NCBI GenBank assembly: GCA_016938135.1
Contig: JAFGVD010000004.1
Span: 1 to 64,000 of the forward strand
DNA: 64,000 nucleotides
Reading direction: 5' to 3'
Source: Coriobacteriia bacterium
Lineage (GTDB): Bacteria > Actinomycetota > Coriobacteriia > Anaerosomatales > Anaerosomataceae
Positions 12,516 to 23,093 of this stretch are shown piece after piece. A program made the position numbers and the translations under genes. Within the stretch, counting starts at the first letter, position 1; the number at the start of each line of letters is the position of its first letter. The notes beneath the pieces are model-generated. The model worked only from the letters and a program-made list of their open reading frames with translations. It did no database searches and had not been told where the DNA came from.

Positions 12516-12959
12516 ATGATCAAGCAACTCTCAGTGTTCCTGGAGAACAACCCCGGCCGCCTGGCTCAGCTGACGCGAGCACTAGGGGACGGTGGCATCA
12601 ACATGCGTGCGCTCATGGTGGCAGACACCGCCGAGTACGGAGTGGTCCGCATCCTGTGTGACGAACCGGATCGCGCGGTAGCGGTTCTAGAGGAGGCCGG
12701 GTTCGGTGTGTCGGTGAGTCAGGTCATCGCCGTAGAGGTGCCCGATCGTCCGGGCGGCCTTGCCGACGTCCTGGAGTCGCTTGATGCCGAAGGACTGAAT
12801 GTGGAGTATGCGTACTGCTTCGTCGAGCCTAAGGGCACCGCTGCGGTGGATATCTTCCGCGTTGACGACCCTGCCAGGGCGCAGCAGGCGCTTGAAGCGA
12901 TCGGAGTGCAGGTGGTCTCGGCTACCGGGCTCTACGCGCCGGACGTCGCTTCGGCCTGA
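12516..12959 (+). CDS. ACT domain protein (tandem ACT), copy 1
   Basis: A 147-residue protein made of two ACT repeats, the small ligand-binding fold that senses amino acids. The first opens LSVFLENNPGRLAQLT and the second VEVPDRPGGLADVLE, each with the Gly-rich turn that binds the ligand. There is no catalytic or DNA-binding domain. Proteins like this are regularly encoded beside PaaK-type ligases and Ior in anaerobes, so it may sense the amino acid or acid that the pathway uses. The 3' end overlaps the convergent gene by 28 bp. Strongly similar to the ACT protein at 30153. Confidence 0.88.
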   Translation: MIKQLSVFLENNPGRLAQLTRALGDGGINMRALMVADTAEYGVVRILCDEPDRAVAVLEEAGFGVSVSQVIAVEVPDRPGGLADVLESLDAEGLNVEYAYCFVEPKGTAAVDIFRVDDPARAQQALEAIGVQVVSATGLYAPDVASA

Positions 12960-13780
12960 TCCGCCGCGATCCCCGTCTCGCACGGGTCGTTGGGATGTGC
13001 CGTAGCGGGCGGATCGAGCCTCCGGCTCAGGTCGCACATCGCTTCCGCGTCTTCCGGGAGCGAGAGGACGCGCGCGGTCACGGAAGTGTCCTTTGCCCCG
13101 AGAAGATCCCGGATATTGCCCTGCACCCGGTCGGCGGCTACGTTGGCGCCTTCTTGCGGTGTATGCGGCAATATCAGCATGAACTCGCCGTTACCCAGAT
13201 ACCCCACGTCATCGACCAGTCGTACATCGTTGCGCATGTGGGAGGCGGCCGTTCGCAGCAGGCCGCGCTGACGGCCGGGGCGGAGATCGGCGAACAGCGT
13301 GGGAGACAGGCTCAGCAATACGATAGAGAGCGGTGTGTTGTATCGGCGGAACTCGCTTATGCCGGAACGCAGTGCCTGTCCGCAGAAGACGCTGTTGTAG
13401 ACCTGAGTCGAATCGTCCACCAGGGAGCTGCCCTGTATCCGGGCGAGGAAGTACTTGATGCGCCCGCATACCTCACCACCTACGATGCCGACCACGCCGT
13501 ATGTGACGGTGCGCGTGACGATCATGCCCACGACAGGTGATGTGAGGCCCTGCTCGTTCATCAACGGGATCCGCATGATGACGTACGCCATGGTCGCCAC
13601 CACAGCTGCAGCGAATCCTCCGTTGCGTCCCCAATGAGCCGCAGCGAACAAGACGACGAATATCAGGAACTGGGCGAATACTTCGCGGGGGAGAAACGCG
13701 CTTCCGGGCATGAACATGCTGCCGACGATAACCGCGCCGCCCAGCGCAAGGATGAGCGTTTCGAATCGCGAGTACTTCAC
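12932..13780 (-). CDS. Membrane protein with degenerate GGDEF-like domain
   Basis: A 282-residue protein: three or four membrane helices in the first ~105 residues, then a cytoplasmic domain resembling a diguanylate cyclase. The expected GGDEF loop appears as GNGEF (196-200) within VGYLGNGEFMLILP, so the aspartate needed for metal binding and catalysis is replaced by glycine. The upstream D-x-LTGLYNR region is reduced to DDSTQVYNS. It is therefore probably not an active cyclase; a sensor or scaffold role is possible. GTG 13780 has GGAGG six bases upstream. Transcribed towards the ACT gene with a tail overlap. Confidence 0.7.
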   Translation of the reverse strand: MKYSRFETLILALGGAVIVGSMFMPGSAFLPREVFAQFLIFVVLFAAAHWGRNGGFAAAVVATMAYVIMRIPLMNEQGLTSPVVGMIVTRTVTYGVVGIVGGEVCGRIKYFLARIQGSSLVDDSTQVYNSVFCGQALRSGISEFRRYNTPLSIVLLSLSPTLFADLRPGRQRGLLRTAASHMRNDVRLVDDVGYLGNGEFMLILPHTPQEGANVAADRVQGNIRDLLGAKDTSVTARVLSLPEDAEAMCDLSRRLDPPATAHPNDPCETGIAADQAEATSGA

Positions 13781-13811
13781 TTCGGGCCTCCGTTGGTCGC
13801 GCGCAGGTGGA

Positions 13812-14156
13812 CTACCGTGGATGATTTGGACAGGTGACCTGGTCGATCGTCAGGTCCATTTCAAGTTCTGAGTGATCGAGTGGGCAGTACCGCACTTTGT
13901 CTACATCCCGCGCATAAGGTCGAAGATCGTCAAAAGACGCCGGGTCTGCACCTTCATGGTCGGACCGGTACATGGTTATCGCTGTGGAAAGGGTGCGCTG
14001 GTTTGAGAAGCAGGTGGCTTCTGCAGCGCGTTCCGATGAACCGGAGAAGCTGGCGATGGCGATCAAGGCCAGGATGCCGATGAGTAGGGTGACGAACAGC
14101 AGTTCAACGATGGTGAACCCGTCGTCGGTGCCCTCTCTCTTCCGCATATGTACCAT
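13812..14156 (-). CDS. Type IV prepilin-like protein
   Basis: A ~114-residue protein with a basic leader, the prepilin peptidase motif DDG/FTIVELL (cleavage after Gly, Glu at +5 of the mature protein) and a hydrophobic helix of ~20 residues. The body has two cysteines in the C-terminal part (YCPL, VTCPN) that may form a disulfide. It resembles ComGC/pseudopilin-sized major or minor pilins. No pilus assembly ATPase, platform protein or prepilin peptidase is in the window, so it depends on machinery elsewhere. ATG 14156 has GGAG nine bases upstream; ATG 14165 is too close to it. Confidence 0.8.
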   Translation of the reverse strand: MVHMRKREGTDDGFTIVELLFVTLLIGILALIAIASFSGSSERAAEATCFSNQRTLSTAITMYRSDHEGADPASFDDLRPYARDVDKVRYCPLDHSELEMDLTIDQVTCPNHPR

Positions 14157-14198
14157 CTGCGGCATCTCCCCCTGATGTGTGATCCGCTTTCAGGCTGC

Positions 14199-20857: not shown

Positions 20858-21169
20858 ATGGGACCTGATAAGCACGCCTCAGACGATGCTTTGCTGGACC
20901 TTGGAGACAAGACCCCGGACGAACTGCGTGAATTGCTTGATGAGCTTTATGCTGAAGAGCAGCGCACCAGTTATCGTAGGCGTGTCCTTCACGGTAAGAT
21001 CGACATCCTTCGCGCCGAGCTGGTGCGCCGGATGAAGACCCAGCGTGAGGCCGGAGAAGACGTTGTCTCTGCCGGTGACCTGGAACGTCTCATCGACATC
21101 CTGTCAAACGATATGCGCGGTGTTTCGCGGTACGATGTGACCGCTGAAGACAGCAACGACGACGAGTGA
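20858..21169 (+). CDS. RsiG-like protein with a single c-di-GMP-binding-type motif
   Basis: A 103-residue helical protein. Residues 34-49 (EQRTSYRRRVLHGKID) have the spacing E-x3-S-x2-R-x3-[H]-x3-D. Streptomyces RsiG, the anti-sigma factor that holds sigma WhiG when loaded with c-di-GMP, carries E-x3-S-x2-R-x3-Q-x3-D twice; single-motif homologues working as dimers are reported from Rubrobacter. Here there is one copy and Q is replaced by H. The flanking YRRRVLHGKIDILRAEL strongly recalls RsiG. ATG 20858 follows GGAGGGGAA, excluding the longer ORF start. No whiG-like sigma gene is in the window. Neighbours are FHA and MerR regulators. Confidence 0.7.
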   Translation: MGPDKHASDDALLDLGDKTPDELRELLDELYAEEQRTSYRRRVLHGKIDILRAELVRRMKTQREAGEDVVSAGDLERLIDILSNDMRGVSRYDVTAEDSNDDE

Positions 21170-21207: not shown

Positions 21208-21468
21208 GTGACAACGATTGCCGACAAGATCCAGTCGTTCCTTGACGACCTGGCCATTGACGCCGTTGAAGAGCGAGTAGTGGAGTACGTGATACGAGAG
21301 GTCCACAACGGACGTAAGCTTGCTGAGGCACTGAGCGACCCGTACGTGCGTAACCGCCTTAGCGAAGAGAAGCTCGCACACGTACTCGAGAACCCTGAGA
21401 TAGCCACCGCGCTTGAATCGCAGATCGCACAGTCATTCAAGAAGAAGGAGTTCGGCTTCCTCGACTGA
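21208..21468 (+). CDS. Small conserved helical protein, function unknown
   Basis: An 86-residue, mostly charged protein predicted to be helical, with no membrane segment and no cysteine. The segment VEYVIREVHNGRKLAEALSD and the lysine-rich tail KKKEFGFLD are its most distinctive parts. GTG 21208 has AAGGAGG five bases upstream, which decides the start over the longer ORF. It sits between the RsiG-like and FHA genes with the same orientation and short gaps (38 and 34 bp). I do not recognise the family. Confidence 0.75.
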   Translation: MTTIADKIQSFLDDLAIDAVEERVVEYVIREVHNGRKLAEALSDPYVRNRLSEEKLAHVLENPEIATALESQIAQSFKKKEFGFLD

Positions 21469-21502
21469 GGCCAGGCGATCCCTACCAGCAGGGATGGTGA
21501 GC

Positions 21503-21949
21503 ATGGAGACCTGTCCGTCATGTGAGACACAGCTACCCGAGGGCGCAAAGACATGCCCCGCTTGTGGCTTGCGCGTCGAAGGCTCCACCGCGTCGTTTGC
21601 GCCCGTCAAAGTGGAGGAGCAAGCGCCGCCGGTTGCAGCAGAGCCTTCGGAAGTACCTGTTCTGGTCGTTCATAAGGGTGCGGAGACAGGGGAGCGTTTC
21701 TACCTGGAGGATGGTGCATACACCGTAGGACGCGATCCGGGCAGCGATATCTTCCTGAACGATGTCACCGTCTCGCGAAACCATGCGCGGATCGATGTGA
21801 TCGGTGGCAACGTCACGGTATCGGACGCTGGTTCGCTCAACGGAACGTACGTCAACGACGTGCTTGTTGACTCGGCGCACCTGCTCAGCGGCGATGCCCT
21901 ACAGGTGGGTCGCTTCAAGATGGTGTTCCTCTCGGGAGGTGGCGCCTGA
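21503..21949 (+). CDS. Zinc-ribbon plus FHA domain protein (GarA-like position)
   Basis: A ~148-residue soluble protein. The N-terminus has two CxxC pairs (CPSC, CPAC) making a zinc ribbon; residues ~60-145 are a forkhead-associated domain with GRDPGSDI, VSRNHARI and SLNGTYVN, the phosphothreonine-reading loops. Mycobacterial GarA and corynebacterial OdhI have the same FHA fold and lie beside the same MerR gene, but carry a phosphorylatable TT motif instead of a zinc ribbon. The linker here contains STASF, which might serve as a phosphosite; that is a guess. ATG 21503 or 21494. Overlaps the MerR gene by one base. Confidence 0.87.
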   Translation: METCPSCETQLPEGAKTCPACGLRVEGSTASFAPVKVEEQAPPVAAEPSEVPVLVVHKGAETGERFYLEDGAYTVGRDPGSDIFLNDVTVSRNHARIDVIGGNVTVSDAGSLNGTYVNDVLVDSAHLLSGDALQVGRFKMVFLSGGGA

Positions 21950-22656
21950 TGAATCCTGCCCGTGAGTACATGACGATCGGTGAGGTAGTCGAGCACCTTC
22001 AAGAGACGTTCTCTGACCTCTCTATCTCCAAAGTCCGCTTCCTTGAGGAAGAGGGCCTTGTATCTCCGGATCGTACAGCCGGGGGTTACAGGAAGTTCAG
22101 CCAGGCCGATCTCCAAAGACTCGAACTCGTCCTTAAGCTGCAGAAGGACAACTTCATGCCGCTTGCGGTGATTCGCGAGAAGCTTGCGGAGTACGATCAG
22201 GGGCGTGTGCCTGCAGAGCTGGAGCCCGTCATCGCTCACACTGAGACGATGATGCTGCCCCTGGAGGACGCGCAGACGGTCCCCGTCAGCAAGGCGGCAG
22301 AGAGCCTCGGGTTGACCGAGGTCTTCGTGCGCGAGCTGGCCGAGTTCGGTCTAATCGAGCTGGTGGATGGCGATCACGGCAAGGAGATCCCCGCGGGAGA
22401 CGTGGGTATCGCTCACGCTTGCTGGGACCTGCGCCGATTCGGCGTCGAGCCGCGCCACCTACGGATCTACGAGACCTTCGCCGAGCGCGAAGCGTCGTTC
22501 TTCTCCCAGATACTGATGCCTACGTTCCGGCACCGGACGCCGGAGGCTCGCCAGAAGCTCGTCGAGACCCTTGGTGAGCTCACCAGACTGACGGGAGAGC
22601 TCAAGAAGCATATGCTGCACCGTGCAATTTCCCGCGTGTTCGAGGACGTCGTATAA
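21949..22656 (+). CDS. MerR family transcriptional regulator (FtsR-like)
   Basis: A 235-residue regulator. The N-terminal winged helix (MTIGEVVEHL through ISKVRFLEEEGLVSP and GYRKFS) is MerR-type, followed by a dimer helix and a second ~110-residue domain with no metal-binding cysteines. The architecture and its place after an FHA gene match FtsR of Corynebacterium (Rv1828 in M. tuberculosis), an activator of ftsZ. The start codon overlaps the FHA stop (TGATGA), so both are translated together. The target genes here are unknown. Confidence 0.82.
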   Translation: MNPAREYMTIGEVVEHLQETFSDLSISKVRFLEEEGLVSPDRTAGGYRKFSQADLQRLELVLKLQKDNFMPLAVIREKLAEYDQGRVPAELEPVIAHTETMMLPLEDAQTVPVSKAAESLGLTEVFVRELAEFGLIELVDGDHGKEIPAGDVGIAHACWDLRRFGVEPRHLRIYETFAEREASFFSQILMPTFRHRTPEARQKLVETLGELTRLTGELKKHMLHRAISRVFEDVV

Positions 22657-22661
22657 GAGTC

Positions 22662-23093
22662 ATGTCCGAGGCAACCGAACTGCCTTCAAGTGATCTGCCG
22701 GTCTCGGCCCAGGTGGCGGCGACCTCGTTCGTTCACCCCAGTGAGCGTGTTGCTGCACAGATCCTCGACTTCTATCGGATCAACTGGGAGTACGAGCCTA
22801 CCCGTTTCCCCATCGAATGGGACGGAGACGGCAATGTTATCGCATGGTTCACGCCTGACTTCTATCTCACGGATTTCGAGCTGTACATCGAACTCACGAC
22901 GATGAGTCAGAAGTTGGTCACCAAGAAGAACCGCAAGGTGAGGCGGCTCAAGGAGCTCTATCCGGACGTGAATATCAAGATCTTCTACCAGAAAGATTTC
23001 AGGAAGCTGCTGTTCAAGTTCGGCATTCCGGTAGAGAAGCGTCCTCATAGCGAGGGTGGGGGACTGTCTGCTCGAGAGGTGGACAAGCCATGA
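22662..23093 (+). CDS. Uncharacterised protein, possible PD-(D/E)xK nuclease fold
   Basis: A 143-residue soluble protein. Residues 40-110 show a pattern like the restriction-endonuclease fold: Glu43, then PDFYL (65-69), then YIELTT (75-80) and a basic helix KKNRKVRRLKELYP. In an active enzyme the third motif would be E-x-K; here it is E77-L-T79, with lysines a few residues later that might substitute. The fold assignment is my inference from pattern only. It sits 5 bp after the MerR gene and overlaps hpt by 4 bp (ATGA), so it is firmly within the operon. Confidence 0.6.
   Translation: MSEATELPSSDLPVSAQVAATSFVHPSERVAAQILDFYRINWEYEPTRFPIEWDGDGNVIAWFTPDFYLTDFELYIELTTMSQKLVTKKNRKVRRLKELYPDVNIKIFYQKDFRKLLFKFGIPVEKRPHSEGGGLSAREVDKP

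What the first reader, a model, noticed from the sequence alone, without database searches (positions are those of the whole stretch)
20858..21169. Single-motif RsiG-type candidate c-di-GMP anti-sigma factor outside Streptomyces
Residues 34-49 have exactly the spacing E-x3-S-x2-R-x3-H-x3-D, with the Q of the Streptomyces RsiG c-di-GMP motif replaced by H. Only one motif is present, as described for Rubrobacter RsiG, where dimers bind the nucleotide. If real, this extends the switch to an anaerobic, presumably non-filamentous actinobacterial lineage, where it cannot control aerial hyphae. It heads an operon with FHA and FtsR-like regulators, hinting at a division or envelope role.
Basis: partly seen in the sequence, partly recalled or inferred. 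Interest (0 to 1): 0.68.

Follow-up and report, generated by a model that had tools for sequence, protein, structure and literature searches.

The report
Single-motif RsiG anti-sigma; pilus control inferred
The gene encodes a small RsiG-type protein, predicted to use the signal molecule c-di-GMP to hold back the sigma factor WhiG, and in these anaerobic, non-filamentous bacteria of the class Coriobacteriia the sigma factor most likely switches on type IV pili rather than spores or flagella.

Summary
ORF 20858-21169 (103 aa) carries one exact E-x3-S-x2-R-x3-H-x3-D motif, the only such motif in the window's reading frames, and is a real RsiG family member (Pfam PF22802 63.8 bits, cut-off 27; significant matches to solved RsiG of Rubrobacter and Streptomyces). 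The five motif residues are invariant in 45 aligned relatives. Histidine instead of glutamine is not a deviation: it is known in functional RsiGs (PMC8325347). The genome encodes the partner (NCBIfam WhiG equivalog, 372 bits, with the K-G-R residues that touch c-di-GMP) and at least seven intact diguanylate cyclase domains. RsiG is present in 65 of 69 genomes of the order (Anaerosomatales/OPB41), a lineage the published survey does not mention, and none of these genomes has flagellin. Instead, a near-perfect WhiG-type promoter (TAAAG-N14/15-GCCGATA) lies 70-109 bp upstream of the type IV pilin gene in 55 of 60 genomes examined; its boxes are about 90% identical, spacer and flanks about 30%. 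So the switch most likely controls type IV pili, as proposed for Rubrobacter. c-di-GMP binding and WhiG inhibition remain untested. New member of a known kind.

The parts
20858..21169 (+). rsiG: single-motif RsiG anti-sigma factor, 103 aa
   Evidence: PF22802 63.8 bits; PDB 7lq4/6pfj by phmmer and profile; PF22802 match in all 45 aligned members
20957..21004 (+). c-di-GMP motif E34-x3-S38-x2-R41-x3-H45-x3-D49
   Evidence: direct reading; E34, S38, R41, H45, D49 invariant in 45 sequences; inside the predicted helix 20-65
21208..21468 (+). small conserved protein of unknown function, about 86 aa, next gene in the apparent operon
   Evidence: no Pfam/NCBIfam family; found downstream of rsiG in nearly all Coriobacteriia/Aquicultor loci, not found in Thermoleophilia-type loci
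21491..21949 (+). zinc-ribbon + FHA protein (OdhI/GarA-like)
   Evidence: PF00498 63.8 bits; NF041660 OdhI 112.7 bits, below its cut-off of 200; syntenic in 66 loci
21949..22656 (+). FtsR-type MerR regulator
   Evidence: NF050798 FtsR 209.8 bits, cut-off 150; syntenic in 66 loci

Best explanation
The protein is a single-motif RsiG that acts as a c-di-GMP-armed anti-sigma factor for the WhiG encoded elsewhere in the same genome (G000:C2:58845-59522). Two RsiG chains pair as an antiparallel coiled coil, hold a c-di-GMP dimer with the E34/S38/R41/H45/D49 residues of each chain, and in that state clamp WhiG. When c-di-GMP falls, WhiG is released and transcribes from TAAAG-N14/15-GCCGATA promoters, chiefly the major type IV pilin gene between pilC and the prepilin peptidase gene, so the switch sets type IV pilus production. 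Shown here: family membership, motif conservation, presence of a WhiG with the c-di-GMP-contacting residues, cyclases, co-occurrence with WhiG across the phylum, and conserved WhiG-type promoters at the pilin gene. Inferred from the solved Rubrobacter homologue: dimer, nucleotide binding, WhiG inhibition. Inferred from sequence only: that these promoters are used, by WhiG, in this organism.
For: RsiG profile and PDB matches. Motif invariant in 45 relatives. WhiG: TIGR02479 288.6 bits, NCBIfam WhiG equivalog NF004935 372.5 bits, cut-off 343; 317 bits to S. venezuelae WhiG against 178 to FliA of 6pmi; K57/G61/R62, which contact c-di-GMP (PMC8325347), are kept (KYVAGR), whereas that FliA has RHEALR. 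Fourteen GGDEF matches, at least seven with an intact GG[DE]EF loop. Of 397 phylum genomes 234 have both RsiG and FliA/WhiG, 14 and 28 only one, 121 neither. Exact promoter pattern: 39 matches in 69 genomes of the order against 4 for the reversed pattern. The only match with at most one mismatch in the window's genome is 93 bp upstream of pilA in a pilB-pilT-pilC-pilA-pilD...pilM-N-O cluster. Of 60 pilin genes 47 score 10 or 11 of 11 and 8 score 9 (shuffles: 0.8% at 10 or more). Boxes 89-91% identical, spacer and flanks 30-34%, and the fifth -35 base, not used in scoring, is G in 55 of 55. No flagellin in 69 genomes. Cultured members of the order are non-motile, non-sporing rods covered in pili-like appendages (PMC9686372).
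Against: No binding or transcription data for this protein or, in the papers found, any Coriobacteriia homologue. The AlphaFold model is of the monomer only (mean pLDDT 74, tails disordered) and its Foldseek search found nothing significant, as expected for a lone helix. Five of 60 pilin genes lack the promoter (in some of these the best pilin match may not be the orthologue). No WhiG-type promoter was found upstream of rsiG (best scores 9 or less) or whiG. Genomes with WhiG but no RsiG exist, and one of them (G091) also has a WhiG-type promoter at a pilin gene, so the pilin link belongs to WhiG and RsiG's part in it is inferred.
Confidence: 0.8

Rival explanations
1. RsiG controls division or envelope genes: its co-transcription with the FHA protein and FtsR reflects its function, and WhiG targets are elsewhere.
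For: rsiG-FHA-ftsR adjacency is kept in all 66 usable loci, across Coriobacteriia, Aquicultor, Solincola and Solirubrobacterales records; FtsR-type match of the regulator.
Against: No WhiG-type promoter in front of the operon. The best and most conserved WhiG-type promoters in the order are at the pilin gene. Conserved adjacency of a lone regulator does not show shared function.
Confidence: 0.08
2. WhiG in this order is held mainly by another anti-sigma factor, a small FlgM-like protein encoded at the head of a second pilB operon, and RsiG is secondary or has drifted.
For: An 87-aa ORF at L191:13510-13773(-), with a homologue in L210, lies under WhiG-type promoters (9 of 11 and 11 of 11) and gives weak FlgM matches of 13.2 and 14.4 bits.
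Against: FlgM scores are far below the cut-off of 25 and may be chance. The c-di-GMP motif of RsiG is fully conserved, which argues against drift, and RsiG-WhiG co-occurrence is strong.
Confidence: 0.06
3. The ORF is a chance coiled-coil with a fortuitous motif.
For: The motif is short and lies in a charged helix.
Against: Profile and PDB matches, 65 of 69 genomes of the order, invariant motif, conserved synteny.
Confidence: 0.01

Closest known systems
Rubrobacter radiotolerans RsiG (PDB 7lq2, 7lq3, 7lq4; PMC8325347)
   Same: One c-di-GMP motif on one long helix, small protein, WhiG in the genome, WhiG-type promoters in the type IV pilus cluster.
   Different: H in place of Q; different class (Coriobacteriia, anaerobic); the pilin promoter is here shown conserved through a whole order; c-di-GMP binding and dimer not tested.
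Conexibacter woesei RsiG (PMC8325347)
   Same: Single motif with H at the fourth position; that protein binds c-di-GMP (Kd 25 uM alone, 1.7 uM with WhiG).
   Different: Thermoleophilia; no regulon reported in the paper.
Streptomyces venezuelae RsiG (PDB 6pfj, 6pfv)
   Same: Homologous helix and motif; its WhiG partner matches the window genome's WhiG with 317 bits.
   Different: Twin-motif monomer that controls sporulation; the window protein has one motif and its cultured relatives are unicellular non-spore-formers.

Membership tests
RsiG (PF22802) | Match to the family profile above the curated cut-off | tested here: met
   63.8 bits, cut-off 27
RsiG (PF22802) | E(X)3S(X)2R(X)3[Q/H](X)3D motif on a long helix | tested here: met
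   Residues 34-49; invariant in 45 sequences; predicted helix 20-65 with pLDDT about 90 around the motif
RsiG (PF22802) | WhiG-type sigma factor in the same genome | tested here: met
   NF004935 WhiG 372.5 bits, cut-off 343; KYVAGR c-di-GMP contact residues kept
RsiG (PF22802) | Binds c-di-GMP | not testable with these tools
   Motif residues present; diguanylate cyclases in genome; binding needs an assay
RsiG (PF22802) | c-di-GMP-dependent binding and inhibition of WhiG | not testable with these tools
   Only co-occurrence: 234 of 248 RsiG genomes in the phylum sample have FliA/WhiG
Single-motif (homodimeric) RsiG subfamily | One motif, no second helix equivalent to alpha5 | tested here: met
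   103 aa, one motif, one profile match
Single-motif (homodimeric) RsiG subfamily | Antiparallel homodimer | tested here: inconclusive
   Monomer model only: one long helix and a short C-terminal helix, pTM 0.54; no significant Foldseek match
WhiG/FliA pilus regulon as in Rubrobacter | TAAA-GCCGATAA promoters in the type IV pilus cluster | tested here: met
   11/11 site upstream of pilA and a 10/11 site upstream of a minor pilin; conserved in 55 of 60 genomes
WhiG/FliA pilus regulon as in Rubrobacter | Mapped transcription starts at these promoters | not testable with these tools
   No transcript data

The most novel reading that the evidence does not exclude
[quoted passage not shown] A FlgM-like protein at the head of a second pilB operon may be a further check on WhiG in these flagella-less bacteria.
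Probability: 0.3. Interest if true: 0.66.

Novelty: new member of a known kind. Interest (0 to 1): 0.5.

Why it matters
The published survey found single-motif RsiG only in Rubrobacteria and Thermoleophilia and tied it to pili in Rubrobacter alone. Here it is near-universal in an order of Coriobacteriia, with a pilin promoter conserved across the order. That strengthens pilus control as the older function and sporulation control as a later use. It also gives a concrete candidate for how Parvivirga hydrogeniphila forms pili-like appendages only on insoluble iron (PMC9686372), and a short list of genes to test.

Tried and rejected
Flagellar role of the FliA-family sigma factor: rejected for this order, no flagellin N-terminal domain in 69 genomes (control genomes rang). 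Division or envelope role through FtsR: no WhiG-type promoter at the operon. Second RsiG copy or hidden second motif: none. Two-mismatch promoter scan of the own genome: 57 matches against 35 for the reversed pattern, too noisy to name targets beyond the best one. Strict promoter-plus-pilin pattern over 397 phylum genomes: 4 hits only, two of them in the own family, one convincing elsewhere (G091), one doubtful (G002), so the pattern is too strict to test other classes. Foldseek of the monomer model: nothing significant, uninformative for a lone helix. Some other exact promoter matches in the order lie before a 5TM-LYT histidine kinase (L200), a CheB methylesterase (L215) and a cNMP-binding protein (L216); seen once each and not claimed as regulon.

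Full report
The ORF at 20858-21169 on the + strand starts with ATG and encodes 103 residues. Its residues 34-49, EQRTSYRRRVLHGKID, fit E-x3-S-x2-R-x3-H-x3-D exactly; no other open segment of 60 residues or more in the window has the motif. The protein matches Pfam PF22802 (RsiG-like) with 63.8 bits against a cut-off of 27. By sequence it finds solved RsiG chains of Rubrobacter (7lq4) and Streptomyces (6pfj) with E-values near 1e-8, and the family profile finds only those, at about 1e-14. The five motif residues are invariant in 45 aligned relatives.

Schumacher and colleagues (PMC8325347) report that histidine is frequent at this place in motif 1 and that Conexibacter RsiG, which has it, binds c-di-GMP. 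They found single-motif RsiG in two Rubrobacter and three Thermoleophilia species only, showed that the Rubrobacter protein works as a homodimer, and linked the switch to type IV pili in Rubrobacter. Their main text has no occurrence of Coriobacter-, FHA, FtsR or synten-, and a search for papers holding at least two of RsiG, WhiG and Coriobacteriia found none that holds RsiG together with Coriobacteriia.

The window's genome carries no name. Relatives found by the RsiG sequence are Coriobacteriia and Anaerosomatales records. I therefore place the window in the order Anaerosomatales (lineage OPB41) of the class Coriobacteriia; this is inference. RsiG is found in 65 of 69 genomes of the order, while the other Coriobacteriia families in the phylum sample show neither RsiG nor FliA/WhiG. 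RsiG appears in 248 of 397 sampled genomes of the phylum, so the family itself is widespread.

The partner is present. The sigma factor at G000:C2:58845-59522 scores 288.6 bits with TIGR02479 and 372.5 bits with the NCBIfam WhiG equivalog (cut-off 343). It is much closer to S. venezuelae WhiG (317 bits) than to the FliA of 6pmi (178 bits), and it keeps the K, G and R (KYVAGR) that contact c-di-GMP in the solved complexes, where that FliA reads RHEALR. Fourteen GGDEF matches, at least seven with an intact GG[DE]EF loop, show that c-di-GMP can probably be made. Across the phylum sample 234 genomes have both RsiG and FliA/WhiG, 14 only RsiG, 28 only the sigma factor and 121 neither (lists copied by hand; genomes are related, so the Fisher value of 3e-57 overstates independence).

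What the switch controls was tested with the flagellar/WhiG promoter consensus used by the published work. In the order, TAAA-N15-GCCGATA occurs exactly 39 times in 69 genomes against 4 for the reversed pattern. About twenty of these matches lie roughly 80-110 bp upstream of a type IV pilin gene (MRMFKKEEGFTLVELMVV...). In the window's genome the only match with at most one mismatch is 93 bp upstream of this pilin, between pilC and the pilin gene in a pilB-pilT-pilC-pilA-prepilin peptidase-minor pilin-pilM-pilN-pilO cluster on contig C44; a second site (10 of 11) lies 68 bp upstream of a minor pilin in the same cluster. Upstream of the best pilin match in 60 genomes, 24 sites score 11 of 11, 23 score 10 and 8 score 9, all 55 at 70-109 bp from the start; the reversed pattern never exceeds 9 and shuffles reach 10 or more in 0.8%. 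The boxes are 89-91% identical between genomes while the spacer and flanks are 30-34%, and the fifth -35 base, which was not scored, is G in all 55. The 450 bp upstream of rsiG, used as another control, give no score above 9. None of the 69 genomes has a flagellin match. The cultured members of the order are non-motile, non-spore-forming rods with pili-like appendages, which in Parvivirga hydrogeniphila appear on ferrihydrite but not on Fe(III)-citrate (PMC9686372).

Upstream in Coriobacteriia and several others lies the glycine-cleavage cluster. This supports common descent of single-motif RsiG in one old gene block. It does not by itself support a division role.

Best explanation: a single-motif RsiG that, as a c-di-GMP-bound dimer, restrains WhiG and thereby type IV pilin transcription. 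Shown: family, motif, partner, cyclases, promoters. Inferred by homology: dimer, binding, inhibition. The AlphaFold model (mean pLDDT 74) shows one long helix, residues 20-65, and a short one, 72-87, compatible with but not proof of the dimer; Foldseek found nothing significant. Since one genome without RsiG (G091) also has a WhiG-type promoter at a pilin gene, the pilus link belongs to WhiG first, and RsiG's hand on it rests on homology. The finding is a new member of a known kind; its value lies in the new lineage and in an order-wide conserved target promoter.

Noticed in passing
L191:13510-13773(-) (G000 contig C11) and L210:1231-1485(-): An 87-aa ORF with weak FlgM (anti-sigma-28) matches (13.2 and 14.4 bits, cut-off 25) heads a second pilB operon, under WhiG-type promoters (9 of 11 and 11 of 11), in genomes without flagellin.
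   Followed up: partly
window 12932-14165(-): A GGDEF-domain protein (28.8 bits, GGDEF loop not found) next to a pseudopilin-like gene, about 7 kb from rsiG; a pilin-like match about 7 kb from rsiG recurs in many genomes of the order.
   Followed up: partly
L288 (genome G091): A genome with WhiG but no RsiG match has an exact WhiG-type promoter upstream of a type IV pilin gene; several genomes of its family (f24) show the same WhiG-plus, RsiG-minus pattern.
   Followed up: partly
window 21208-21468(+) and 22662-23093(+): Two small proteins without a convincing family in Pfam or NCBIfam are kept next to rsiG-FHA-ftsR through the order.
   Followed up: no
genomes G063 and G112: Five and six RsiG profile matches in one genome, far more than the usual one or two; possible expansion of the family.
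   Followed up: no
L103:4779-5057(+): One RsiG relative (64% identity) in which the exact motif was not found; mutation, variant or sequence error not checked.
   Followed up: no
L189:12285-13961(-): The pilus extension ATPase PilB of the WhiG-linked cluster has an MshEN domain (73.5 bits), a domain known to bind c-di-GMP in some proteins, so c-di-GMP might act on these pili at two levels.
   Followed up: no
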